Below are positions 15,101 to 59,800 of a stretch of 64,000 nt of DNA, piece after piece. Origin of the DNA: Branchiostoma floridae (lineage: Eukaryota > Chordata > Leptocardii > Amphioxiformes > Branchiostomatidae); NCBI RefSeq assembly GCF_000003815.2, contig NC_049993.1:13031602-13095601 (forward strand). The letters are read 5' to 3'. Every line of letters begins with the position of its first letter. The stretch's first letter is position 1. The position numbers and the translations under genes were made by a program. The notes below the pieces were generated by a model. The model ran no database searches and was not told where the DNA came from. It saw only the letters and a list, made by a program, of their open reading frames with translations.

Positions 15101-18100
15101 TGAACAATATATATCATCTTGATGGGCAATGGTTTCAGACTGTAATATTTTGAAACCACTGTTCATCGACTTGATAGTCCTGAAGTGCCCTGTTTGCAAA
15201 TACAATAGATATAGGTTACCCCATGCCATTGATAAAGGTGAACTACAGTTCTGTCTGTATTATTTGTCTTGTGAATTGTGATGATAATGTTGGAACTGTA
15301 TTTTATTTTTAGTGCACATATCCTATAGTATGTATCCTTGTCAACTTAAATTTCATGTGAATAAACATTTGTGATGTACCGATCCTTAGGTATGTGTAGC
15401 TGCAAGTCTCAGCTGCCGCAGCTGTCGGGTAACGTGATCGTGTTGGGAGCGGGTGATACCGCGTTCGACTGCGCCACGTCTGCCCTGCGCTGCGGGGCGC
15501 GGAGAGTTTTCATTGTGTTCCGTAAAGGCTTCACCACCATCAGGGCTGTTCCAGAGGAGGTCAGTAACTCCCTAGTGACAACTTCGTTATAACACATGCT
15601 TCAACTTGTTCATGAACCAGCACAATTTTGTGAAGCTTGCTGTTTCAGCCGATGAAGCGATATTAAAGATTATTTTGGAACTGATAGAATTGACTACTGT
15701 ACATTGTAGGTATACCAAGACTTGTTGTGAAGCAAAGCAATGAAGATGTATGGCATTCTGCATGATGTATGNNNNNNNNNNNNNNNNNNNNNNNNNNNNN
15801 NNNNNNNNNNNNNNNNNNNNNNNNNNNNNNNNNNNNNNNNNNNNNNNNNNNNNNNNNNNNNNNNNNNNNNNNNNNNNNNNNNNNNNNNNNNNNNNNNNNN
15901 NNNNNNNNNNNNNNNNNNNNNNNNNNNNNNNNNNNNNNNNNNNNNNNNNNNNNNNNNNNNNNNNNNNNNNNNNNNNNNNNNNNNNNNNNNNNNNNNNNNN
16001 NNNNNNNNNNNNNNNNNNNNNNNNNNNNNNNNNNNNNNNNNNNNNNNNNNNNNNNNNNNNNNNNNNNNNNNNNNNNNNNNNNNNNNNNNNNNNNNNNNNN
16101 NNNNNNNNNNNNNNNNNNNNNNNNNNNNNNNNNNNNNNNNNNNNNNNNNNNNNNNNNNNNNNNNNNNNNNNNNNNNNNNNNNNNNNNNNNNNNNNNNNNN
16201 NNNNNNNNNNNNNNNNNNNNNNNNNNNNNNNNNNNNNNNNNNNNNNNNNNNNNNNNNNNNNNNNNNNNNNNNNNNNNNNNNNNNNNNNNNNNNNNNNNNN
16301 NNNNNNNNNNNNNNNNNNNNNNNNNNNNNNNNNNNNNNNNNNNNNNNNNNNNNNNNNNNNNNNNNNNNNNNNNNNNNNNNNNNNNNNNNNNNNNNNNNNN
16401 NNNNNNNNNNNNNNNNNNNNNNNNNNNNNNNNNNNNNNNNNNNNNNNNNNNNNNNNNNNNNNNNNNNNNNNNNNNNNNNNNNNNNNNNNNNNNNNNNNNN
16501 NNNNNNNNNNNNNNNNNNNNNNNNNNNNNNNNNNNNNNNNNNNNNNNNNNNNNNNNNNNNNNNNNNNNNNNNNNNNNNNNNNNNNNNNNNNNNNNNNNNN
16601 NNNNNNNNNNNNNNNNNNNNNNNNNNNNNNNNNNNNNNNNNNNNNNNNNATAGTGTTGCTTTTATACACCACACACACACAAGGACACTTACACACACAC
16701 ACATACACACGCACTCAGACACATACAAATGTACACACTGGCACACACAGACACAGAGAGAGACACACACAGACACACAGACACACACACAGACATACAC
16801 AAACAGACACAGACACATACACAGACACAGAGACACACACATGCCGAAAACAATACTCCCTTGTTGGATGTTAAGAGTAACCTTTCTGATGTTGAACAAC
16901 TCCCCAGATGGAGCTTGCCCGTGAGGAGAAGTGTGAGTTTGAGTATTGTTAGATGTTAAGACTAACCTTTCTGATGTTGAACAACTCCCCATGAGGAGAA
17001 GTGTGAGTTTGAGTATTGTTAGATGTTAGATGTTAAGACTAACCTTTCTGATGTTGAACAACTCCCCAGATGGAGCTTGCCCGTGAGGAGAAGTGTGAGT
17101 TCATGCCGTTCCACTCGCCCAGGAAGGTTGTGCTGAAGAACGGGCGCATCGCGGGGATGGAGTTCTGCCGTACGGAGCAGGCCGATGACGGGACCTGGCA
17201 CGTGGACGAGGACCAGGTGGTGAAACTGAAGGCTGATTACATCATCTCCGCTTTTGGGTCCACCCTGTCTGAACCGCAGGGTGAGTGGGGCAATTTCTAT
17301 TTAGTAGTCATTTATAAAGATTTTTGCATATCATTTTAATCCTGTGGATTTATTTTATATGCATCATACCTTCATGTTTCTTTACACGCAAAGAGCGAAT
17401 TACTAGAATAAGAATTGTTGCTTCATATTATCAATTATGTATGAGCTGCTCTTAATTTTGTCATTAAGGTGCACAACACAGATTTTGGGGTATAACTCTT
17501 TTATACGAATCTTTTATCTTTAATACGTTTCTTTTGTCAGTTACGTGTATATGGAAATTTCCTTGATATAGTCTTGATTTTTTAAACCTGATAAGTTGAG
17601 CTGCTTTTTTGGTTGCTTTCGGACAGACGAGGACAATGTTGCACTGTGCTAAAGTTCTTTTGTTTTAGTATTTTATTTTAACAGTGTCACATACAGAGTA
17701 CAGACAGAAGGTAAAAGCAGCATTTTACCTCCCCGACCAAAGTCAGATACCCATTTTTACACATGGGTGAAGTGAGCAAGGTACTAGTTTCTGGTACTGT
17801 TTCCTAAGGGCACAATGGCGTGGGCAAAGTGGGTAACTCAGGACAGCTAGGTTCCGAGTCCAACACTATAAGTTAAGCCACACATGATGCCACAAAACTG
17901 AGCTGCTTGAAATGCTTTCATGTCAGGGCTTGAAATACCACCTGCATATGCAGGTTAGTGCAGGTAAAATTGGAGCTGTGGAGGTATTTCTGGTGTCTAC
18001 CTGCACCTAACCTGCACTGGTCCATGTACTGGGTTTTATACATAAATGTCATATGGTTTAGGTGTATGTGGATTGTTATTAGCTGCATTGACTGTTACCA

Positions 18101-24100: not shown

Positions 24101-27100
24101 CAAAAATTTTTTGGTGCACCCAATTTTTTAAGCTGGGTGCACCAGTGCACCTAATCCCAAAAATGAATTTCGAGCCCTGTATCACCAACACTTTTCCCAG
24201 AAACATTTTATAAACTTGGTAGTAAAGATTTACAAAAGACCTGCATTTAAGCGTTAGCTAAAAAGTAAAACCCCACATTTTTTATGTGTAGGGTAGTGCC
24301 TATCTCTACTACTAGTATATACAATATACATCCGCCACACAGTTCTGCAAGGACTACAGAACACTAGCTCACTGGTAGTGGTGCATGTCCAACTGCTTTG
24401 CTCTTTCCATAAGTGCTAAACAGAGAAAGCTGTATGTGTTATTTTTAAAGTCTAAATCTCTTTATCCTGTATGTTTGTGAACCCTACAGGATCCTGAGCT
24501 GGTGCGTAACATCTGTCGCTGGGTGAGGTCTGCCATCAAAATCCCCTTCTTTGCCAAGATGACTCCCAACATCACTGATGTCACTGTCATAGCTCAGGCA
24601 GCTAAGGAAGGTACACCTGCCCCATCAGTTTTAAATTTGATGAGTACAGAATGCAGGTTATCTCTTTTTTTAGTCCCACGTAATTAATATACCTTAAGAG
24701 CACTTACTGCATTGAATAGCACATACACCATATATAATTTTTGAATGTCAATGATGTTGTATCCCAGATATTACAATTTACATTACAAGATTAGACATTT
24801 TGTAGTCTATATTTCAACCTGAACCCCAAAGTATTCCCAAATCTTTAACCTTTTGCACACTGAAGTAGCCATTTGGCTACTAATGTTTATTAGGCAGTAG
24901 GAAGGAAGTTGATATTGGGTATAGCTATCATGAATTTTTTGTAGAGTTGTAGTACTGTTTTAGGGTCTGTATTCGGTTAATGTTTGACCTTGTTCATGAC
25001 CTTGGTGTTCCCTGCCCACCAGGCATGGCTGACGGAGTGACGGCCACCAACACCGTGTCAGGCCTGATGGGACTGAAGTCCAACGCACGCGCCTGGCCCG
25101 CTGTCGGACAGGAAATGCGAACAACGTACGGTGGTGTCTCCGGGAACGCTATCCGTCCCATCGCCCTCCGCGCCGTGTCCGCCATTGCCCGCGCTCTGCC
25201 GGGATTCCCCATCCTGGCTACTGGTGGTATCGACTCTGCTGAAGCTGGTCTGCAGTTTCTACACTGTGGGGCTTCTGTACTACAGGTGATGAGTTGTCTT
25301 TTGTGTCTGTTTTGTCACAAGCCATCCTAAGTTTCGCTTTCAGGGACCACTTGGTCTTGTTTAATTCCTAAGTAGACTGCACAAAATGATTGCTGTAACA
25401 TGAGAATGACATGAGAAAAATCGTGTTTAATGAATGTGTATAAACGATAGCCGGTTAGGATACAGTTCTTTCTATCAAATTTAGAATAATTGCTTTTATT
25501 TTTAGTCCAAATGTAGATAATATGTACTAATTTAGTTTGTGTGCAAGAATACTTGACATGACTTCCTCATCATGGTGACATAATACATGTAGGATTAATT
25601 GCAGGATAATGATTAGATTAGGGTCATGAAAAAGTGACATTAATGTAAAAGTTTGTAAATTTTGTACTACATGTATGAAAGCAAAAGTTAGAAAAAGATG
25701 AGAAAAGGAAAACATACAAATCAGTCACTGCTTTTGCTCTCTTGATCTATCATCATAACATGTGCAAAAGCTAGGTGTGACGGGTCCTTCGGTGTAATAT
25801 AACCAGCTGCTGCCGCGCCGCGTGCCTGCGAAGCTGGTGTGTTATGCCGAAGGGCGGTTATTCCGGCTATATTGATACAGATACGTGCATATCATTTTTG
25901 AGTAACATATCAAAGCTTATAACCGCCCCCCTCCCCCCACAGGTGTGCAGTGCCATACAGAACCAGGACTTCACAGTGGTGGAGGATTACATCACCGGGC
26001 TGAAGGCCATGTTGTACCTACAGAGCCTGGACGATCTGGCGGACTGGGATGGACAGAGCCCCCCCACCTTCCGCCACCAGAAGGGCAAACCTGTCAAGGT
26101 CGCTGACGTCATCGGAAAGGTACGGTTCTGGGCTGCTTTAGTTTGGTCAGAAGATCATAGTTAGATTGGAGAAACTTGAATGCCGAAAGTCAGTCAAGAT
26201 CTCAACAATATAGTATCTTCAGTGATATATAAAAGAAAAGGAGCCTTTTAAGCAAACATGAGGTAAAGGGGAAAGGAGGATTTTGCCGTGTTTCAATTTT
26301 GCAGTTAAACTTGAAGCATTTCTGTATTACAGTAGTAATGGTAATTGGAAACACATATTCATGAATTTGTGGTGGAGCTAGAGTTATATAGACTACCGTT
26401 GAGATCCTCAATATCTTCTTCTTCTTCAAGTATCCCATTCTGTAGGTCTTCCAATTTGTGTATTTAGTAGTACAGAACACTTTGTTTAACACAACAAGTC
26501 CTTTTGTCTTCTTGCATTTAAAAAAAGTCATGCAATGTTGTGTTTGTTTTGTGTAGCATCTACCTTCCTTTGGACCCTACATGGCCCAGCGCGAGGAAAT
26601 CATCGCCAAGCATCACGAGACGTCAGAGATTCTGGCGGAACAGAACATGCCGCAGCCGCAGCGCCCCGCACGTGTGCCGGACAAACCTGTACCATCTCTC
26701 CAGGTGGGTTTGCCTGCTGAGCTTGCATCAATATTGTTATATCTTATGCCACAGCAAGTACATTTTATGGATGACATTCTCTGCAGACTGAACAAATGAG
26801 AGTTTAAGGGTAAAAAAAATTAGTTGGCAAATTTTCAATATAGACACCATAATTGTTGTAACAAAAATTGAAGTTACAAAATGTGGCATCACAACCAACA
26901 AGGCATTCATTCCTGTATTCAAGAAGCACACTTTATACTTCAAATTTTTGACACTTCAACTGACATTCTATATGCTTTTTGTGTAAGAGAATGAGATGCT
27001 TCTTCCAGACTTTTCCCAGTGACATGGCTAAAGTCTTTGACCATATCAATCAGTACTTAATCTGCCTTTTCCACTAGACAGTGGTTGCTGAGAACCCCTG

Positions 27101-37357: not shown

Positions 37358-40300
37358 CTACCTCTTTTTCATGATTGTTTTGATGTCACTTGCCAGCTTT
37401 GTTACATCAACAATACCATCCGTACAGTCCATGTATGTCAGGTGAGTTAGTTCGGTAGGAATCACACACTCAGACTTCAATATGGGGAGCACACAGTGTT
37501 CGTCATTTCGCATCGCTTTCTCTACGGCTGCCCTAAGCTCAACTTTACACCAGTTGCTGACAAGAAAGTTCTTGGAGAGGACAACTAGAATCTTCCTACT
37601 GTTGGCTACAGCCCAGGTGATATTGTCTGTGATGGGAACACCGGTCTTGAAGTCCCTGTGGTGGAAACAGATCTTCAGGTTGTGGGGTGGGGACTCTAGC
37701 TGATGAACTAGCCTATTCACCCAGGCGAAGTCCCGCTGGTTCGCCGACACGAAGGCGTCAAACGAGAATGTCGAGCTTAGCAACCGATGGGACCCTATAG
37801 GTTTCGGAGATGGAACACAAGGGTCAATTTTACCAATTTACCATACTTAAGGAAATCATAAATACCTAAGTGCAAAACTGCCTATTGATTAAATACATCA
37901 TAAGCCCGTTTTACACAGGCAACACAAGTTATCATGTGGGGCGCTTTGGGCTACTCAACTGGGGTTTTCCTACAACAAAACGCTGCATGTAACTCATGGG
38001 CGTGGGGTTCCCTTTGTACAGTCCTGAGTCGACTCCGAAAACGCGTGTGTAAATCGGGCCATAGATGTGTATTATACAAACAGGTGTTAGTTTAGAGAGT
38101 TTTCATGAAGGTCTCAAGAAAATTGATCTACCGAAATAATTAGATTTAGCAGTTAACTTGACTATTCATGTTGAATCAGACAAAGTATCTTCCGGGACTC
38201 TCTATAAGTGTACCAATAAATAATTTGATAGAAAAAAACATTTATTGTATGCTGTTTTCCGAAACAACTCAGGTCTTCTGTTTTTTTTCACATGCCAATC
38301 TATACATATAGATAAATACAATGAGCTTTTAAAGACCACCTGCTATTTGAATGTCTTAAGAATCCCCAATATAGAAAAAATACGTTTAGGGAAAAGTATA
38401 TGGTTGAAGTTAATGCAGACCTGAACCTGGTGAGATAGAAACTTCCTCGAAGCCTTTGATGAAGGACTGAGAGACTGGTGCAGCTGCAGCTGTAGCTCCG
38501 ACCTAAAGAAGGACGAAGACGGATCATACCATGATAAATCACTTCAACAGAGAACACCGTCAACACTATCAATTGTATTTGCCTTTACAGAAAACATCCA
38601 AATTGTTTCTGAAACATGTCATTATGGAGACAGAATAAACGTTGCCTAGACATAGTGGAAGTTGTATGTGCAGGTGATAGGATTGTGGTTATGAGAAACT
38701 TAAAAAAAAACCTTAAACGTTGTTGTAAAAGGGACGTATATGTTGTCACACTTGTACACCTGTTGAAATACGTTTCTGCTTTGAGTTTACATTGTTCGTG
38801 AATGCACTTACACTTTCCTCCTCTCTGTTCTCTTTGATATCATCTGTCACTCCGGCCCGGTTTCGCTCGTCAATAAGCTTCTTTTCAACAAGATCTGCAA
38901 CGTTAAAATGATATGTCAATAACAGGGACGATGATGCAAAACAATACCCCCACCAGAGGTGACTTTCACGAGGGTAAAAAAATCTAGTTCATACAATTCA
39001 ATCACGGTAGCTTCACTGCTACAGTCTGTGTAACTGACCTGCCTCATCCGGCATCTGCATGTTCTGCAGCGCCCACCACACGTCAAAGATGTTTGGCCAG
39101 TCCAGCTGCCTGTCCAGCCACATCAGCAGACTCCTCACACTCATCTCCTTCAGCCCTGCCCGGTCCCGGTCACATCTGTACTGGACATCGTCCAGGTCAA
39201 CCTCCGTCAGGCCCAGCCGGCGGCCGAGCTCCCGCCATCTCCGTCCAATGTGCTCACTCAGGACTGTTGTGATGATGGTCCGAATGATGGTCTTGGGATA
39301 AGAAGCAAATATGTCAGTATGAATCAAAGTCCTTGGTCAAATACGGCGACAAGACCAAATTTTGTGTCAGTACTATTAATGCATCCTGCCAGAAATTCAC
39401 CATTTGTAAATGAATGAGTTTTTTTTTAAATCAGGTTAATTTTTAAATACCCCATCTTGTACGTGGGCTAAGCAGTACTATACTGGAGATGAGGTGACGA
39501 AATACGTACCTTCTCAATTTGAAGCCTTGTTTCAAGTGAGCCGCTTTCTTCTGAAAGCTCCGCCGGAAACTTGGGTCCAGTTTGCTAGCAAGTGGAAACC
39601 ATTTATTGTTAGTTGTTGGCATCAGTGCATTATATTTTCTTGTACTCATTTAAATGTGTCTCATGTATTGGCAATGAAACGTAGACAAGGACACGGTATA
39701 TGTTGTCATTAAATCAATGTAAAGGTGACAAAATATAACACATCAAACGTTTCAGGCACCTTTCATTGCTATTGATATCATTGTTCACGTTATAATAAAT
39801 AGATATGTACTTATTAGTTTAAGTAAGCATGCAAATAACATCTTTGTGAATGCACAGTGGGTGGTAACATTGCCTACTTATTCATTATGACGAGTATCTC
39901 AACTTAGAGCACGTCCCAAGTTACGGTATCCGCCTTTTCCCCATATAGGCCCCAATGGGAACAATTGATATCTACATACTTTACTAGCTGTCATCTTCCT
40001 GCTGGCGCTCCACAGTGTGTAGGCGACAAGGTGGCGGCAGCATTCCAATGCATAGTCATAGGAACTCTTTTCCTTTAATTGCTCGGTTTGTTTATTCTGA
40101 AAAGCAAAACAAATTTCCTACGTGAATCTCCTTAGATACCAGATACTACACATCTAATATGAGTTACAATAGAAAAAAAGCTACTCAGAAACAAACTGAC
40201 ATGGCACTGAACCCTGCTAAATAGAACGCATTTGACTGTAATGATATATCAAATCAAATGAAAATTCCTTGATAACTAGAAAACTTGTCTGTATGTTTAT

Positions 40301-43300
40301 ATTTGCTTATCAATCACATTGTTCGCACAAGATATTTACTGTGTGTAGTATATGATCTAACTTAATAAGTCATGTAAAGGAATCACAAATACCTTTATCT
40401 TTACTGTACATGTTGTATCTGCTCCTGCACAGACAAGGACATTCACGATGTTCAGGTTTCCTGAAGTCGCTGCGCAATGGAGCGGAGTTATGTCAGTGAG
40501 CTGTTCCGTTGATGTTTCAGACTACATGTATGTGGAGAACAACACGGATTTAGTTCAACGCTGCCATTATGACATACAATTTAGAGTTTTCTACAATTTA
40601 GAGTTTTCTACAATTTAGAGTTTTCTCCAAACTTATTCCATTCTGGACATTTATGACTAAATTCTGTACCATGTGAAGATTTTATCATCACGATTATATT
40701 GTTCTATGTGATCTCTTTTTTATCCATCTTGCCTGCTTAGCCTTGTCAACATCAGCCCCAGCCTTCAGAACTTGATGAGAATGAATATCGGGAAGGAGCA
40801 AGATCTGTACCATGTGCGAGTCTACAATCTAAATGTGATCTCGCTTCTATCCATGTTACCTGCATAGGTTTGTCCACTTCTGCTCCAGCCTTCAGCAGCT
40901 GCTGCACAACTTCCACATGTCCCTCCTGGGATGCTATGTGCAGTGGAGTGGCTCCGGTCTGTGTGAGTAGAACTTCATTAGAATGAATATCGGGTAAGAG
41001 CAAGTTCTGTACAATGTGCGAGTCTACAATGCTAAATGTGATCTCGTTTTTATCCATCATACCTGCTTAGCCTTGTCCACTTCTGCTCCAGCCTTCAGCA
41101 GCTGCTGCACAACTTCCACATGTCCCTCCTGGGCTGCTATAAACAGTGGAGTGGCTCCGTTCTGTGTGTGAGTAGAACTTAATGAGAATGAATATCGGGT
41201 AGGAGTATGTTCTGTAAAATGTGTAAGTCTGTGATGCTAAATGTGATCACGTTTTTATCCACCTTACCTGCCATGCCTTGTCCACTCCTGCTCCAGCCTT
41301 CAGCAGCTGCTGTACAACTTCCACATGTCCCTCCCCGGCTGCTATGTACAGTGGAGTGGCTCCGGTCTGTGTGAGTAGAACTTCATTAGAATGAATATCG
41401 GGTAGGAGCAAGTTCTGTACAATGTTAGAGTCTACAATGCTAAATGTGATCTCGTTTTTATCCATCTTACCTGCATAGCCTTGTCCACTTCTGCTCCAGC
41501 CTTCAGCAGCTGCTGCACAACTTCCACGTGTCCCTCCTGGGCTGCTATGTACAGTGGAGTGGCTCCGGTCTGTGTGAGAGTAGAACTTCATTAGAATGAA
41601 TATTGGAGAGGAGCAAGTTCTGTACAATGTGCGAGTCTACAATGCTAAATGTGATCTCGTTTTTATCCATCTTACCTGCATAGCCTTGTCCACTCCTGCT
41701 CCAGCCTTCAGCAGCTGCTGCACAACTTCCACATGTCCATTCTGGGCTGCTATCAACAGTGGCGTGACTTCTTCCTGTGTGTGAGTAGAATTTGATGAGA
41801 ATGAATATCCTGAGAGGAGCACTTTCAGTACAATGTGCGAGTCTACAATACTAAATGTGATCTCGTTTTTATCCATCTTACCTGCATAGCCTTGTCCACT
41901 TCTGCTCCAGCCTTCAGCAGCTGCTGCACAACTTCCACATGTCCCTCCCCGGCTGCTTTGAACAGTGGTGTGACTAAGTCCTGTGTGTTAGTAGAATTTG
42001 ACGAAAATGAGTATCGGTAAGGGGCATGTTCTGTACAATGTGCAATTGCAAGTCTACGATGCTAAATGTGATCTCGTTTTTATCCATCTTACCTGCTCAG
42101 CCTTGTCCACTTCTGCTCCAGCCTTCAGCAGCTGCTGCACAACTTCCACATGTCCATTCTGGGCTGCTATGCACAGTGGTGTGGCTCCTTCCTTTGAGTA
42201 AGTAGAACTTGATGAGAATGAATATCGGTAAGGAGCAAGTTCTGTACAATGTGTGAGTCTACGATGCTAAATGTGATCTCGTTTTTATCCATCTTACCTG
42301 CTCAGCCTTGTTCACTTCTGCTCCAGCCTTCAGCAGCTGCTGTACAACTTCCACATGTCCCTCCTGGGCTGCTATGTACAGTGGTGTGGTTCCGTCCTGT
42401 GTGTGAGTAGAACTTGATGAAAATGCATATCGGAGAGGAGCAAGTTCTGTACAATGTGAGAGTCTACAATCTAAATGTGATCTCGTCTTATCCATCTTAC
42501 CTGCACAGCCATGTCCACTTCTGCTCCAGCCTTCATCAGCTGCTGCACAACTTCCACATGTCCATTCTGGGCTGCTTTGTACAGTGGCGTGGCTCCGTCC
42601 TGTGTGTGAGTAGAATTGATGAGAATGAATATCGGGAAGGAGCAAGTTCTGTACAATGTGAGAGCTTACAATCTAAACGTGACCTCGTTTTTGTATCCAT
42701 ACCTGCCATGCCTTGTCCACTTCTGCCCCAGCCTTCAGCAGCTGCTGCACAACTTCCACATGTCCATTCTGGGCTGCTATTAACAATGGTGTGACTCCGT
42801 CCTGCGAGTGAGTAGAACTTGATGAGAATGTATATCGGGTAGGAGCATGTTCTGTACAATGTTCGAGTCTACAATGCTAAATGTGATCTCGTTTATATCC
42901 ATCTTACCTGCTTAGCCTTGTCCACATCTGCTCTGTTTGACTTCTCTAGAGTGGGCGTTTGTGGGCATTCGCTAAAAAGACCCTGGGTTAGTGGTCTGCC
43001 TAGTGTTGTATGGATACGAGAGTTGTGCTGAAATGTGGCGGATAGGTATTGTTGGAGCCAAGCCTGTCAGACATTTGAAAACCATAATGCACGTGTGCTC
43101 AAATCTCCTATCCGCCAGGTATTTCCAGTTGAGAGTTTGGTGGAGGTTCACAGTGCTGATGTCCCGTTGCCTACGTTGTAGCACCACCCTTGCCGCTCTG
43201 TTTTGTAGTATTTGTAGTTGCCGTTGTTTGGTGGCCCCACAGGTTCCCCAGACAGTGTCACAATAGTCGAAAATAGGCAATATCATACAATGCTGATGCG

Positions 43301-44472
43301 GCCTATTTTCTTATTTATATAACGTTATATCATACCTGCTGCGCCATGTCCACGTCTACTCCAGCCTTCAGCAGCTGCTGCACACCTTCCACATGCCCAC
43401 CCCAGACTGCATCGATCAGTGATCCTGAGGTGGCCGCATCCTGTGGAACAGTGGAAAGGATGGCGATAAATACAAGCATCGCAATATGATAAAAGCACAT
43501 AGTACCTGTAACTGTCACGTGGAATCATGATGTACAATGTATGTTTCACTGCAGTATCAAACTATTCTTAAATTGGTGATTTGCTTTGTTTTTGTGCGCG
43601 AGTATTCAGATCGTTGTACATTTACGCGCACCACGCGAAAGGCGTAGGATTTGTTACGAATTAAATGACAATATTACTGAAAATATCCGAAGTCACACGT
43701 CTTTGGTGACAAGACCTTGGTTAAAAATGCACCAACCACTGAAAGACTGTACTTCAAAAGTTTTCTTACAGCCCAGCAACTATATATATCAGTGGAGACA
43801 CAGTATATTGAGCAATGACATAATAATTCATACAATGTATGTGTTACCTTCTGTAAGTAAATACGTCACACCGGTACCTTGTTTGTTCACTAACGTTTAT
43901 ATGACTTACATAGAAAAGCACACTGATGAAACGGTTTGCATAAGCAAGAAATTACCTGTCCTAACGTTGCATCCAACAATAAAGTGCGCAAAATCTATCA
44001 ATTGTAACGATCTTATAAACGTTTCACATTTAATTGCGCGATGACCATAACAATGCTTCTGACAACACTTCCCTTCAAGTATATATGTAAGATATCTATC
44101 GCTGTTAATGATCAAATCACTATAATCCAATAACAATTAGTGAGTTAAATTACATAGAAACATAGAAACCCATAAAGTTAAAGTTATGAAAAATATTCGA
44201 AAAAGCAATGGCTGGATAAACAGGACCCTTCGCCATAACCACATTAAAACCCGTTTGAGACCGAAATAATTATCTGATTATATACTGAGTAAAATATTCC
44301 ACGCACTACACTTCTTTATCGGCAGCTAGTCTCTTGTATCTGTAACTTTAAAAACGTTTATTCAGTTGTAATTGTCTCCTTGTTTTAACTGTACCTTATT
44401 CAGATCCGGGACCCACATAGTGCAAAGTACAAAATGTTGACTTACCTTGCTGTTCGTTGGTTCCCCTGACAT
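37358..44472 (-). CDS. Ankyrin repeat, Death domain and TIR domain protein
   Basis: Probable cytosolic innate-immune or cell-death adaptor. All joins are GT-AG and in phase: 44446-44472 (MSGEPTNSK), 43336-43440, ten 99 bp ankyrin exons (starting at 42703, 42501, 42298, 42093, 41882, 41676, 41471, 41268, 41063 and 40860), 40393-40521, 39980-40096, 39510-39584, 39039-39291, 38812-38894, 38421-38502 and 37358-37794, about 765 residues. Residues 10-417 are ankyrin repeats (pattern GATPLYIAAQEGHVEVVQQL). About 482-565 is a Death domain (SEHIGRRWRELGRRLGL). 630-765 is a TLR/MyD88-type TIR domain: box 1 FDAFVSANQRDFAWV, BB loop RDFKTGVPI, then SRKILVVLSKNFLVSNWCKVEL. Death-TIR is the MyD88 order, but MyD88 has no ankyrin repeats. 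The acceptor of exon 40393-40521 is uncertain (40500 is also in phase), and the number of repeat exons used in mRNA is unknown. Confidence 0.85.
40576..40626. repeat. Three tandem copies of a 17 bp unit
   Basis: ACAATTTAGAGTTTTCT is repeated three times head to tail in the intron between the last ankyrin exon and the repeat array. A minor minisatellite. Confidence 0.85.
40733..42933 (-). repeat. Tandem array of ankyrin exon-plus-intron units (about 204 bp each)
   Basis: Unit starts on the plus strand are 40860, 41063, 41268, 41471, 41676, 41882, 42093, 42298, 42501, 42703 and 42908, a spacing of 202-211. Each intact unit has one 99 bp phase-0 exon coding a single 33-residue ankyrin repeat, plus an intron of 103-112 bp that is also conserved (GTAAGATGGATAAAAACGAG at the donor side). 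Ten exons are intact. The first unit in gene order (42908-42933) is cut to 26 bp by a LINE fragment. The last (40733-40768) keeps only 36 bp of exon and has a GC instead of a GT donor. Confidence 0.93.
42934..43330 (-). mobile_element. 5'-truncated LINE fragment, reverse transcriptase C-terminal region
   Basis: A minus-strand frame (42972-43286, about 104 codons) contains PIFDYCDTVWGTC, LQILQNRAARVV and LADRRFEHTCIMVFKCLTGL, the pattern that follows the reverse transcriptase domain in Jockey/CR1-type non-LTR retrotransposons. It ends in a stop and 38 further bases before abutting the broken ankyrin exon at 42933. The rest of the element is absent. It lies in the same direction as the host gene. 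Confidence 0.8.
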
Positions 44473-46070
44473 GCTGGCACAACTTAACTTAACCCAGTTG
44501 GCAGAAAATCAGCTGAAATCTTTCATCCACTCTTCTCCAGATTTTCAGCACAAGTTACGCTATTCTAATTATATTTGGTTGCTCAGGGAAACAGATTAAA
44601 GCTGTAGCACAAGTTCTTGGCCTTCCCGACTGAGTCACAGGCGACGACTGTTATCTTCAACCAATGAGAACTTGACAACAGTTATATGCCGACCAACCGT
44701 TGCCCAGCGGTTTTGGACTTTGCTTTTCTATCACATGCACAAGGCTAACATAAGCAGAAAATATTGCAAATACGTGACGATTATGATATTTCGTTTTATT
44801 CTTCACTATATAGTTATATCATTAACTTCCATTCTTCATAATGGATTTCAATAAAGGTGTGTAGTGTTTATGTCTAAACGTTGTTGTGAAATACAATCTT
44901 TCACTGAGATTTAGAATATATCAACCCGGAGCCCAATATGTAACCTAATGTTTACACACTTAAAATAGACTGTAACACCATACTATTTTCAAGTGCCTAA
45001 ATGGGACTGATAAGAAAAATAGATCAATAAGTAAGCCCTTTCACGGATCAAGCTGTGCATGTGCAGGTCAAAGGTGAAGGCCCCTGACAAGTAAAGAGTC
45101 AACAGTAGAGGAAGATGTTCTGGCTGGTTCTATATATGATGCAATACAAAAATATATGTATAAATGGTAACTTGACATCGAACTTGGACTAGGAAAGTTT
45201 TATACAATGTGTATATTACCCAATATAGAATCAACTGTGTAACTTGTTAACAACTTTTCCACTGTAGGTAAGTAGACACTTTGAATGCAGCTAATGTACA
45301 TGTACATGGTGTGGGAATGTTCATTTTATTCATTATAGTTCACACACACTCACAAATTGGGCCACAATTAAAATATCAAAGTCACTTATTTTCCCCAATA
45401 AAAGTCTTCACATGTCTGGCCATGTTTGACATGAAGTTGAAAATAGAATTACATTGACTTGGCATCGTAATCGTTCACCATTGTACTTACTGGGCATTTT
45501 GATGAACATGTCTTAGAGAATAAATACTGATTTGGAGTATTGACAGTGGCAGAGAAGAATCTCATTTCCTAATTAGAACGTGTTTTCCTTAGCACAGAAA
45601 TAGTCAATGAGAGAATATTCATGCTCAAAATTGCATTAAGTATGCAAATTAAACATTACAGTGCAATGTCACATTTTGACATTATCATAAAACAATGAAT
45701 ATTTGTTCAGTACCAAAACATCAATTAGGCTCATTACAGTAAATCAAATACAGAGTTTCAGTCGCATCTATATGTTGTGTACAGTTGTAGTAAGTTTACA
45801 TCAGAACTTTGGCTACAAAATAAAGGTAATGTTGTTCATTTCTATCAGTTTCTGTGAAAAGTTCTGCAGAGCAGTGCCACAACTTCTCATAGTTGTTCCC
45901 ACTTTCTTATTAAAGATTCTTACAAAAGACATTAAAAACTTCAAATTAACAGGTGTGTTACTATTACTAAGGCACATCTAATCCTATACATATGTTACAG
46001 GGTTACTGTTAACCCTTGTTATACTGTCTTCATAAAGTCAGTTAATCCAAGGAGGTTGAAATAAGATTGG

Positions 46071-56800: not shown

Positions 56801-59800
56801 TTAGACACATTAGATAATTGTTCTTTAAACAATCTTAGTTCCCTTTTACAGAGAATGCCTCCTTTGTATATTGTAGTGTCTTCATTCTACAATAACATTA
56901 AAAAAATTATGATTATGGAGTTGACATGTCATTCGATATTTCATTTGTAATACAAGACTTGATATGTTTAAAATGTTTTCCTCTGTCATTTTTTAGGCTC
57001 CTGGCACCACAACTTTGCAGGAACTCTTCACCCTTCACCCAGACAAGAAAGAACTGGTCATGAAAGAGTTTAAGGAATCTCTCACCCCACTGTTGGAGAA
57101 GTGAGTAACACAGGAATTTATTGCCTGGTATCTTATAGTTTGTAATCTTAAGGGAAAACTGTCTTCTTCTTCTTTCTTTTACACCCGAATAGTTATGTAG
57201 GACAGCATATTTACACAGCAGGAAAATAGCTCACCTGGCAAGTTTGTATTTTGTTGCGCTGCTATTTTGAATGAATGAAGTACAGAAAATACTGCGTATT
57301 GTACATATAATTCGAAGGTTGTATTGATGTGCCTAATCCATACCTTTGTTTAGGACTGTGGTGAAACATACTCTGGTACACAAGGCTTTACTGGAGTTCT
57401 TCACTCATGCTGAGGGCAGGCTTAGAGCAGTAAGTTATGTCTTTTTTTTCTTTGCTATGTACAAGAGATGCAGGCTTTTAGCCAGGCATGCGTCAACGCG
57501 TCCAGAAGACGCGCTCTTCTTAGAATAACAAGATATTTGACGCTCTGGACGCTCTTGCACTGGGGAGAAAATCCTCTGACAAGCATGAAATTCTGATTGA
57601 CCAGAGATGCTACCAGGTCATCTGTGGCTAGTCCTCTACTGTGGCCTCTGTAACTGTATTTTTGCCTTTTAGGATACCTTAGAATGCACTATTTTTAATT
57701 CAAAATCATCAAAAACTCAGCACCATGGAAGGTGGATGCCCCTGGACCCCCCTTACCGTGACTCACCAATAAATTTGGACTCCCTAGAATAAAATCCTAG
57801 CTAAAAGCCTGAAGAGATGGTTGCATCTATGCATACTCTATTGTATATTTTCAATAGCATTTAACATTACTGAGAACCACTATTTGTATCAGGTAAATGT
57901 GGTTGATATAGAAAGATGTAAGGCAATCTTTCTCACTTAAGGTGAAAAAGAATCCTTTTGAAGTATATTATAGCTATGCAACGTTGCCACAGCTTGTGTT
58001 CACAGCCAATCACACAGGGTCATCCCTTCTATTCTTGATAAGTGTGTTTGGTTCTTTTATGTGCACAGGTTTGATGCGATTAATTCCTAAAGTTGTCTCA
58101 TATGTGGGGCTGCAGGCTTAATGCCACCACTGTAATGCGAAAAACACTCCCCTTATAACATGCCCAAGCTAGGCCAGATCCTGGGATCAAATCCCAACCC
58201 AGATCCACAGATGAAATGTTGTGATTGCACTTCTGTCTTCTCCGTGTCTTGGCAACATGTATCTGCATCTGTATCATTCCATAAACATGTAGCTGGTACT
58301 ATTGTCCTTCTGCTTAACGCACCAGCTTCAATGATACTTGGTGACTTACTTAAAAGTAGCATGGCTCTTTGGGTATTTTAAGCACTGTCCTTGGTGCTGA
58401 ATGGCATATCTTTGTCTTGAAAAGGTTTTTGTCATTCTTTAGGAAATGATTGAAGCCATCAGAGAGTCCCTCATCCACATCCTGCACACCCATGATGGGT
58501 CAAGGGTCACCATGCACTGCCTATGGCATGGGACAGCCAAGGTAACCTTTGACAGTTGACCTTCCTGGTGACATTTGGCACTCTATAGCATCCACAGAAG
58601 AAATGTTAAATTAACAGTGTACAATGGAAACTCAATGTATATCAACCATAACTTTTTGTCACATTTATCAATTCTATTGTTCTTTCTTTCTTTACAGGAC
58701 AGAAAAGTCATCATCAAGACAATGAAGACCTTTATGCAGAAGATTTGCCAGGTATACCTAAAATTATGTTTATGTCATGAGTTCTCCATATTATAGTTAT
58801 ATAGTAACTGTCATAACACTAGAATCATAGCTAAGGTATGTTGCATTTTACATCAGAATAACAAAGACAGTTGGTCAATTTATTGCTATTTTATCAATAC
58901 ATATTGAGAAATGTTCATTTCTTGCTCCACAGGAAGAGTTTGCCCACCATACCCTGCTGGCACTGTTTGATGTAGTTGATGACACCAAGTTGGTCTCTAA
59001 GGCCATCTTACAGGTATGGAGTCTTTACACTATGTTGAATTTGTTGATCCCTTGTTTCAAAATAGCCAGGAGGTCAAGCTTCGCCAGTATGGACAAGGAT
59101 CGCTATTAGGGAACACGATGCAACTATATCGAGGAGCTTTATTCCAACATGGCGATACCATGGGAGTCGGTGGTCGGACTGACTATAGGACCGAACCAAC
59201 ATAACATAGGGGTGTTATTCTAACTAAATACAACATAAACCAACATGGGCGGCGCTTACTTACTTGGTCAAGCTTGTTTCACCCAATAAAATCAACTGTT
59301 ATACTGACAGCGCCTCAGAGAGTTACAAATATATGCCAATATCTAAACATCACATGATGATCACAGGCTGTATTAAAACTGAAAATAGCTCATGGAAGTT
59401 GAAAGTTGCTTTTCTAGGAATCAATCAGGATCTAATTATGCCAGATTGTAATCTTTATCCTGACATATTTATTTATTCATTTATGTGTTGTTTTACCAGG
59501 GTAAGCTCCCATCAGTGTCTAGCACTGTTTTACAGGAAGGCCCTAGGTACACTCATAACGCATACACATTACAATATTTGCATAGCACAACATATTGTCA
59601 AACACACATTTTCCTGTACCTGTTGTGTGGGAGACACCACGGTCACATCCACCCTGACATCTATATATAAACTATANNNNNNNNNNNNNNNNNNNNNNNN
59701 NNNNNNNNNNNNNNNNNNNNNNNNNNNNNNNNNNNNNNNNNNNNNNNNNNNNNNNNNNNNNNNNNNNNNNNNNNNNGGATATCAGTCGCCAAACGTTGGC

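What the first reader, a model, noticed from the sequence alone, without database searches (positions are those of the whole stretch)
37358..44472. Ankyrin-Death-TIR fusion protein, a MyD88-like adaptor carrying its own repeat array
The spliced model joins an ankyrin array, a Death domain and a C-terminal TIR domain in one frame with consistent phases. Death-TIR is the MyD88 order; ankyrin repeats replace the receptor-recruitment context and could act as a ligand or partner sensor. Lancelets are known for expanded and shuffled Death/TIR repertoires. I do not know of a described family with exactly this order and this exon structure, so it is the best candidate here for an uncharacterised immune component.
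Basis: partly seen in the sequence, partly recalled or inferred. Interest (0 to 1): 0.85.

Follow-up and report, generated by a model that had tools for sequence, protein, structure and literature searches.

The report
Ankyrin–Death–TIR gene with expandable sensor array
A lancelet-type genome carries a real 19-exon gene joining a recently multiplied ankyrin array to a Death and a TIR signalling domain; it looks like a TIR-bearing branch of an ankyrin–Death family rather than a MyD88 relative, and the likely binding face of its repeats has diversified faster than its own introns.

Summary
On the minus strand, 44472..37358, 19 GT–AG exons with matching phases encode 756 aa: start exon, ankyrin cap, ten 99-nt phase-0 ankyrin exons, a last ankyrin, linkers, Death, linkers, TIR, stop. 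A paralog on another contig (C6:19.46 Mb) repeats the order, with a 76% identical TIR. Four tandem genes (C6:25.3–25.4 Mb) share the ankyrin–linker–Death half but carry COR–Death–Death (Roc seen in three) instead of TIR. So it is one gene. 'MyD88-like' fits only the Death–TIR order: the Death is closest to RIPK1, FADD and ankyrin-1, with no MyD88 hit; the TIR is closest to TLR2, its BB-loop proline replaced by Thr. New: the array is a recent 205-bp exon+intron expansion, and replacements concentrate on the ankyrin concave face at 2.5 times intron divergence. Best reading: a cytosolic sensor with a diversifying ankyrin surface and an exchangeable C-terminal signalling cassette. Function, ligand and expression are untested. 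Literature searches, limited to open-licence papers, did not find this order. New variant of a known kind; interest 0.62.

The parts
44609..44760 (-). conserved 5' flank (promoter/5'UTR side) of the start exon
   Evidence: about 76% identical over about 150 bp to flanks upstream of the g3 and g4 start exons, BLASTN E 1e-23 to 3e-25
44446..44472 (-). exon 1, start codon, MSGEPTNSK
   Evidence: ATG, donor GTAAGT; similar start exons MSEGATITK (g3) and MSEGGTNTK (g4) with GTAAGCCA donors
43336..43440 (-). exon 2, N-terminal ankyrin cap (35 aa)
   Evidence: same 105-nt exon in g2, g3, g4 and the C6:19.46 paralog; Pfam Ank only 14.5 bits, under cut-off
42703..42801 (-). ankyrin exon 1 of 10 (99 nt, phase 0)
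   Evidence: Pfam Ank 2.6e-9
42501..42599 (-). ankyrin exon 2 of 10
   Evidence: Pfam Ank 2.8e-8
42298..42396 (-). ankyrin exon 3 of 10
   Evidence: Pfam Ank 4.4e-10
42093..42191 (-). ankyrin exon 4 of 10
   Evidence: Pfam Ank 2.5e-9
41882..41980 (-). ankyrin exon 5 of 10
   Evidence: Pfam Ank 2.1e-6
41676..41774 (-). ankyrin exon 6 of 10
   Evidence: Pfam Ank 1e-7
41471..41569 (-). ankyrin exon 7 of 10
   Evidence: Pfam Ank 2.1e-9
41268..41366 (-). ankyrin exon 8 of 10
   Evidence: Pfam Ank 4.4e-8
41063..41161 (-). ankyrin exon 9 of 10
   Evidence: Pfam Ank 1.5e-9
40860..40958 (-). ankyrin exon 10 of 10
   Evidence: Pfam Ank 2.7e-10
40767..42933 (-). tandem array of a 205-bp exon+intron unit, 10.6 copies, 87% matches
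   Evidence: Tandem Repeats Finder
40393..40500 (-). last ankyrin exon (divergent, 36 aa)
   Evidence: Pfam Ank 1e-6; homologous in 5 of 5 paralogs
39980..40096 (-). linker exon 1 (39 aa)
   Evidence: homologous in 5 of 5 paralogs
39510..39584 (-). linker exon 2 (25 aa)
   Evidence: best tblastn match in each of 5 of 5 paralogs, E 7e-6 to 8e-5 in the short stretches searched
39039..39291 (-). Death domain exon
   Evidence: Pfam Death 1.2e-5; five close paralogs 70-79% identical, same splice phases
38812..38894 (-). linker exon 3
   Evidence: homologous in the C6:19.46 paralog, g2, g3 and g4
38427..38502 (-). linker exon 4, restores the frame into the TIR exon
   Evidence: GT-AG and phase fit; only a weak candidate counterpart in the C6:19.46 paralog
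37358..37794 (-). TIR exon with stop codon
   Evidence: Pfam TIR_2 1.5e-18; one paralog 76% identical

Best explanation
It is a gene for a cytosolic sensor-transducer. The ankyrin array is the recognition part: each repeat is one 99-nt phase-0 exon, so exon+intron units can be added or lost without breaking the frame, and most of the residues that vary between repeats lie on the concave binding face. Ligand binding to the array is proposed to bring molecules together, so that the Death domain (RIPK1/FADD type) and the TIR domain (TLR type) cluster and recruit partners by like-with-like contacts, leading to NF-kB-type activation or cell death. The TIR stands where sister genes carry a (Roc–)COR–Death–Death cassette: one sensor–Death chassis with exchangeable outputs. 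Shown: gene anatomy, paralog family, two kinds of C-terminal cassette, recent array expansion, replacements on the concave face above intron divergence, purifying selection on Death and TIR. Inferred: cytosolic location (no strongly hydrophobic stretch), sensing, clustering, downstream pathway.
For: Gene model and phases. Same architecture in the C6:19.46 paralog, with 21 ankyrin exons by my filter. Four sister genes share last ankyrin, linkers and Death and continue with COR–Death–Death in 4 of 4 and Roc in 3 of 4. The tree split (window gene + C6:19.46) against (g1–g4) has 80% bootstrap. The array is a 205-bp unit x 10.6. pN by surface: concave 0.308, core 0.076, convex 0.009, basal 0.061 (surfaces from PMC8415598 Table 1, section read). 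Concave pN exceeds the units' own intron distance in 36 of 36 pairs (units 1-9), mean 0.321 against 0.127, bootstrap difference 0.12-0.26. Concave pN is the highest of the four surfaces in each of the four other arrays tested; the fifth, g1, had one exon in the fetched DNA and was left out. Highest 19-residue Kyte-Doolittle mean 1.27. TIR dN/dS 0.20, Death 0.35. Published precedent for ankyrin repeats behaving this way in immune sensors: fungal NLRs (PMC4986451, passages).
Against: No expression, ligand, structure or functional data. [quoted passage not shown] only the excess over introns speaks for selection, from ten repeats whose pairs are not independent. Position 7, classed as core in that table, is among the three most variable codons here, and concave position 33 does not vary. 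Concave pN stays below the concave synonymous value in g3 (0.299 against 0.321) and in the C6:19.46 array (0.410 against 0.489). Mean amino-acid identity of the repeats, 0.818, is under the 85% used for fungal 'high internal conservation' repeats. The BB-loop proline, essential in several TLRs and adaptors, is missing, so canonical TIR signalling is uncertain. Large ankyrin arrays can also be scaffolds (recalled).
Confidence: 0.5

Rival explanations
1. It is an adaptor in TLR signalling, working like MyD88, and the ankyrin array only tethers it to a cytoskeletal or membrane partner or keeps it inactive, without sensing non-self.
For: Death then TIR is the MyD88 order; TIR closest to TLR TIR domains, MyD88 also found at 9.5e-10; Death related to RIPK1/FADD.
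Against: Death has no MyD88 match; BB-loop proline absent, although MyD88 P200H keeps NF-kB activity (PMC3594740, passages); a tether does not explain concave replacements above intron divergence.
Confidence: 0.2
2. The TIR acts as an enzyme (NAD+ hydrolase or cyclase) released by ankyrin-driven clustering, as in SARM1 or plant and bacterial TIR systems.
For: Weak matches to NAD+ hydrolase AbTIR (E 0.0092) and plant TIR proteins, and to retron-TIR and Thoeris models far under their cut-offs; a WCKVE glutamate conserved in both paralogs (its catalytic role is recalled, not tested).
Against: TLR2 has the same glutamate in WCKYE and the best matches are TLRs by many orders. No active-site modelling was possible (structure queue full).
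Confidence: 0.15
3. The gene is a decaying paralog: the retroelement-like insertion and truncated ankyrin remnants mark loss of function, and the replacement excess is relaxed constraint.
For: A retroelement-like fragment stands before the tail of a broken ankyrin unit (42908-43310), and a truncated unit lies at 40733-40774.
Against: 10 of 10 internal exons and all splice sites are intact; TIR dN/dS 0.20 and Death 0.35; relaxed constraint alone does not lift pN to 2.5 times intron divergence.
Confidence: 0.07
4. Two neighbouring genes, an ankyrin gene and a Death–TIR gene, are falsely joined.
For: No transcript was available.
Against: Last ankyrin, linker 1, linker 2 and Death follow in this order in 5 of 5 paralogs, and TIR follows in one; phases match throughout.
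Confidence: 0.02

Closest known systems
MyD88 (Death–intermediate–TIR adaptor)
   Same: Order Death then C-terminal TIR; no strongly hydrophobic stretch
   Different: Death not MyD88-type; TIR closer to TLR2; BB-loop proline replaced by Thr (Ser in the paralog); N-terminal ankyrin array
Roco proteins of the DAPK1 group, and Roco–Death–TIR proteins of sea anemones and Aplysia
   Same: The sister gene g3 reads ankyrin–Death–Roc–COR–Death–Death; DAPK1 is a Roco with a C-terminal Death domain (PMC6337361, passages; its ankyrin repeats are recalled); kinase–Death–TIR with Roc/COR (NG3) is reported in three sea anemones (PMC5094078, passages) and a Roco MyD88-like protein in Aplysia (PMC9334734, passages)
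   Different: No Roc or COR match in the window; ankyrin–Death is joined to TIR without them
Fungal NLRs with ankyrin repeats of high internal conservation
   Same: Multiplied, similar ankyrin repeats with replacements on the concave face and beta-hairpin (PMC4986451, passages)
   Different: No NACHT/NB-ARC exon in the model; one exon per repeat; mean repeat identity 81.8%, under their 85% threshold
Shuffled TIR and Death proteins of amphioxus (Zhang et al. 2008)
   Same: 28 TIR combinations in amphioxus, 20 specific to it (PMC2575513, passages)
   Different: The words 'ank' and 'ankyrin' do not occur in its main text; its figures and additional files were not readable here

Membership tests
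MyD88 | Death domain followed by C-terminal TIR | tested here: met
MyD88 | Death domain most similar to MyD88's | tested here: not met
   0 MyD88 among 30 PDB sequences at E<=10 and 0 among 44 at E<=1 with a six-sequence profile; RIPK1, FADD, ankyrin-1 lead
MyD88 | TIR most similar to MyD88's | tested here: not met
   TLR2 4.8e-18, TLR6 and TLR1 e-13 to e-12, MyD88 9.5e-10
MyD88 | BB-loop proline | tested here: not met
   RDFKTG (window) and RDFKSG (paralog) against RDFIPG in TLR2; not decisive, since MyD88 P200H keeps NF-kB activity (PMC3594740)
MyD88 | binds TLR/IL-1R TIR and IRAK4 (Myddosome) | not testable with these tools
   needs protein work
MyD88 | groups with lancelet MyD88 in a tree | not tested
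   no lancelet MyD88 was fetched
Roco (DAPK1 group) | Roc–COR tandem | tested here: not met
   no Roc or COR match in the 64-kb window or in L021 to L023 around the C6:19.46 paralog; positive control: COR in 4 of 4 and Roc in 3 of 4 sister genes
High-internal-conservation repeat sensors (fungal NLR type) | repeats over 85% identical over at least 100 aa | tested here: not met
   mean pairwise aa identity 0.818 (0.727-0.909), nt 0.888, over 330 aa
High-internal-conservation repeat sensors (fungal NLR type) | replacements concentrated on the concave face above a neutral yardstick | tested here: met
   window array; inconclusive in g3 and the C6:19.46 array
High-internal-conservation repeat sensors (fungal NLR type) | repeat-number polymorphism between individuals | not testable with these tools
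   one assembly only
Ankyrin–Death family found here | cap – ankyrin exons – last ankyrin – linker 1 – linker 2 – Death in order | tested here: met
   last ankyrin to Death in window gene and 5 of 5 paralogs; cap in 4 of 5; the g1 array lies mostly outside the fetched DNA (1 ankyrin exon seen)

The most novel reading that the evidence does not exclude
Lancelets possess a family of NTPase-free or Roco-linked intracellular immune receptors whose recognition part is an exon-per-repeat ankyrin array that grows, shrinks and diversifies at its binding face by unequal exchange, within and perhaps between loci, and whose output is set by swapping the C-terminal cassette (TIR or Roc–COR–Death–Death): an animal counterpart of the fungal repeat-shuffling sensors, and a further route to germline receptor diversity in a chordate without antibodies.
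Probability: 0.35. Interest if true: 0.85.

Novelty: new variant of a known kind. Interest (0 to 1): 0.62.

Why it matters
If true, a chordate innate receptor family uses ankyrin repeats the way jawless fish use LRRs (recalled) or fungi use WD, ANK and TPR repeats (PMC4986451, passages), with one exon per repeat as the unit of change, and pairs this sensor with interchangeable outputs. It makes testable how a sensor is coupled to TIR without a TLR ectodomain or an NLR ATPase. Death and TIR domains are over-represented in the dispensable genes of two lancelet species (PMC12373286, passages), which fits a fast-turnover family.

Tried and rejected
Rejected: two separate genes (conserved order in five paralogs). 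Rejected: simple MyD88 expansion (Death and TIR matches). Rejected: pseudogene (intact exons, dN/dS). Considered, not settled: exchange of ankyrin exons between contigs. Window exons reach 96% identity with exons of the C6 cluster, whose Death exons are only 82-84% identical to the window's in nucleotides. But silent sites of codons 13-26 are less diverged than the rest of the exon in every array comparison made (for window, g2 and g4: pS 0.07-0.11 against 0.13-0.27), so codon-level or splicing constraint could imitate exchange. The ankyrin-exon tree does not make the window's exons monophyletic; support printed at the node is 34, after re-rooting.

Led nowhere: the genome-wide Death census scored only 150 of 588 candidates, so a full count of Death–TIR neighbours was not possible. 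The COR census did not complete. Of the ten other TIR loci listed (about 3.3 kb each, plus strand only) four showed their TIR frame (L011, L012, L016, L019); by eye none looked like ankyrin. Locus L046 was fetched but not analysed. A codon-model fit printed no omega. Structure prediction was never accepted because the queue was full, so no fold comparison was made. No lancelet MyD88 was fetched for comparison.

Not in print: the searches behind this are (open-licence PubMed Central full text only). One search, with six hyphenated spellings of the order, found 0 papers; of the papers listed by the others I looked at passages of eight. Subscription papers, supplements and figures were not searchable.

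The ten internal ankyrin exons were scanned with Pfam only.
Full report
What is there. Nineteen exons with GT–AG borders and matching phases run from ATG at 44472 to the stop at 37358 and encode 756 aa: a nine-residue start exon, an ankyrin cap, ten ankyrin exons of exactly 99 nt in phase 0, a divergent last ankyrin, two linkers, a Death domain, two linkers and a TIR domain. Pfam recognises TIR, Death and the last ankyrin over its cut-offs and 10 of 10 internal ankyrin exons; the cap is under the cut-off. The ten exons sit in a 205-bp tandem array of exon plus intron, 10.6 copies with 87% matches; exons are 88.8% and introns 88.0% identical on average, so whole exon+intron units were multiplied. 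Silent divergence within the array (pS 0.10) is well under that of the Death exon against its paralogs (pS 0.27-0.37), so the expansion is the younger event. The most hydrophobic 19 residues average 1.27.

Is it one gene? The window lies in a held genome of 513,431,437 bases (Branchiostoma floridae from recall, no tool named it). The TIR exon has one close relative, C6:19459088-19459498, 76% identical; the other 77 of 79 matches are 27-46%. Its neighbourhood repeats the layout with last ankyrin, linker 1, Death, linker 3 and TIR, a cap exon, linker 2 and 21 ankyrin exons by my filter. The Death exon has five close relatives among 8 matches: that paralog and four tandem genes at C6:25.31-25.41 Mb (g1 to g4). 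These four carry last ankyrin, linker 1, linker 2 and Death in order; three of them show the cap exon, and the array of g1 lies mostly outside the fetched DNA. Start exons with similar peptides and donors, and a conserved 5' flank, occur in g3 and g4. A false join of two genes is therefore very unlikely. The fourth linker, needed for the frame into the TIR, has no firm counterpart.

Where it comes from. Behind the Death exon g3 carries Roc, COR, Death and Death (Pfam: Roc 4.1e-8, COR-A 3.7e-16, Death 1.1e-8 and 7e-12). By tblastn with the g3 exons, COR and both further Death exons are in 4 of 4 sister genes and Roc in 3 of 4; in g1 no Roc was found although no gap lies between its Death and COR exons. 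The window and the three fetched stretches around the C6:19.46 paralog gave no Roc or COR match, and only their own Death exon as a weak match to the further Death exons. The tree of the shared exons splits the two TIR genes from the four Roco genes with 80% bootstrap. So one ankyrin–Death chassis carries two kinds of C-terminal cassette. Which is older could not be told: no rooted tree was possible.

Is it MyD88-like? Only in order. The Death domain finds RIPK1, FADD and ankyrin-1, and no MyD88 among 30 sequences at E<=10, nor among 44 at E<=1 with a profile of six. The TIR finds TLR2 first and MyD88 about eight orders later. The BB-loop proline seen in TLR2 is Thr here and Ser in the paralog. 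A review calls it invariant and essential in TLR2, TLR4, MAL and TRAM, yet MyD88 P200H still activates NF-kB (PMC3594740, passages).

The array. By the surface classes of PMC8415598 Table 1 (section read; exon codons match its numbering by T4, P5, L6), pN is 0.308 on the concave face, 0.076 in the core, 0.009 convex and 0.061 basal; shuffling positions reached the concave value in 4 of 100,000 trials. The concave value exceeds the distance of the units' own introns, splice ends trimmed, in 36 of 36 pairs (units 1-9; 0.321 against 0.127), bootstrap difference 0.12-0.26. The ten most variable codons are 1, 32, 7, 12, 3, 11, 2, 8, 27, 22: seven are concave, but codon 7 is classed core (the paper notes that residue 7 is partly open to the concave face), and concave codon 33 does not vary. 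In the C6:19.46, g2, g3 and g4 arrays concave pN is also the highest of the four surfaces and above the overall synonymous value (only just in C6:19.46, 0.410 against 0.389), but below the concave synonymous value in C6:19.46 and g3. Several concave positions are amongst the most diverse in ankyrins at large (PMC8415598, passages), so the weight lies on the excess over introns in the window's array. Death and TIR evolve under constraint (dN/dS 0.35 and 0.20 against the C6:19.46 paralog). Sensor variable, signalling parts conserved: that is the pattern of a recognition protein.

Mechanism (inferred). A cytosolic protein whose ankyrin face binds a microbial or modified-self molecule; binding clusters the chains; Death and TIR domains recruit partners by like-with-like contacts towards NF-kB or death. 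Rivals are a TLR adaptor with a tether, or an enzymatic TIR.

What is known. Amphioxus has many TIR combinations (28, of which 20 specific; PMC2575513, passages). Death and TIR domains are enriched among the dispensable genes of two lancelets (PMC12373286, passages). Proteins joining Roc/COR, Death and TIR are reported in sea anemones and Aplysia (PMC5094078, PMC9334734, passages). Fungal NLR ankyrin repeats show the same concave selection (PMC4986451, passages). The exact order ankyrin–Death–TIR was not found, within an open-licence library only; annotations of lancelet proteomes could not be searched, so automatic gene models of this order may exist.

Limits. No transcripts, no second individual, no second species, no structure model. 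Few repeats, and pairs of repeats are not independent. The genome-wide Death census was capped (150 of 588 scored).

Noticed in passing
window 42908-43310 (-): Retroelement-like fragment (reverse-transcriptase-like by eye; no Pfam hit over cut-off) lies where a further ankyrin unit has lost its front; only the tail ADVDKAKQ (42908-42931) and a GTAAGATGG donor remain.
   Followed up: partly
window 40733-40774 (-): Truncated ankyrin unit (LKAGADVDKAKQ, donor now GC) at the other end of the array.
   Followed up: partly
G000 C6:25390749-25402331 (L041, L042): The fourth cluster gene has at least 35 ankyrin exons by my filter in higher-order blocks (EGFTPLH.../NGATPLF... pairs repeated), only 21 of them distinct: recent multi-exon duplication; two assembly gaps lie inside the array.
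   Followed up: partly
ankyrin exon codons 13-26, window and C6 arrays: Silent sites in the second helix are less diverged than the rest of the exon across two contigs; splicing signal, codon preference or exchange between loci.
   Followed up: partly
G000 C6:25295000-25435000: Tandem cluster of four ankyrin–Death–(Roc)–COR–Death–Death genes; I know of no description of this Roco architecture, but made no separate search for it beyond.
   Followed up: partly
window 24953-25327 (+): Exon of a neighbouring gene with a dihydroorotate-dehydrogenase-type domain (Pfam DHO_dh 9.4e-15); by eye a dihydropyrimidine dehydrogenase.
   Followed up: no
window 15772-16649 and 59677-59776: Runs of unknown bases (N) in the assembly.
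   Followed up: no
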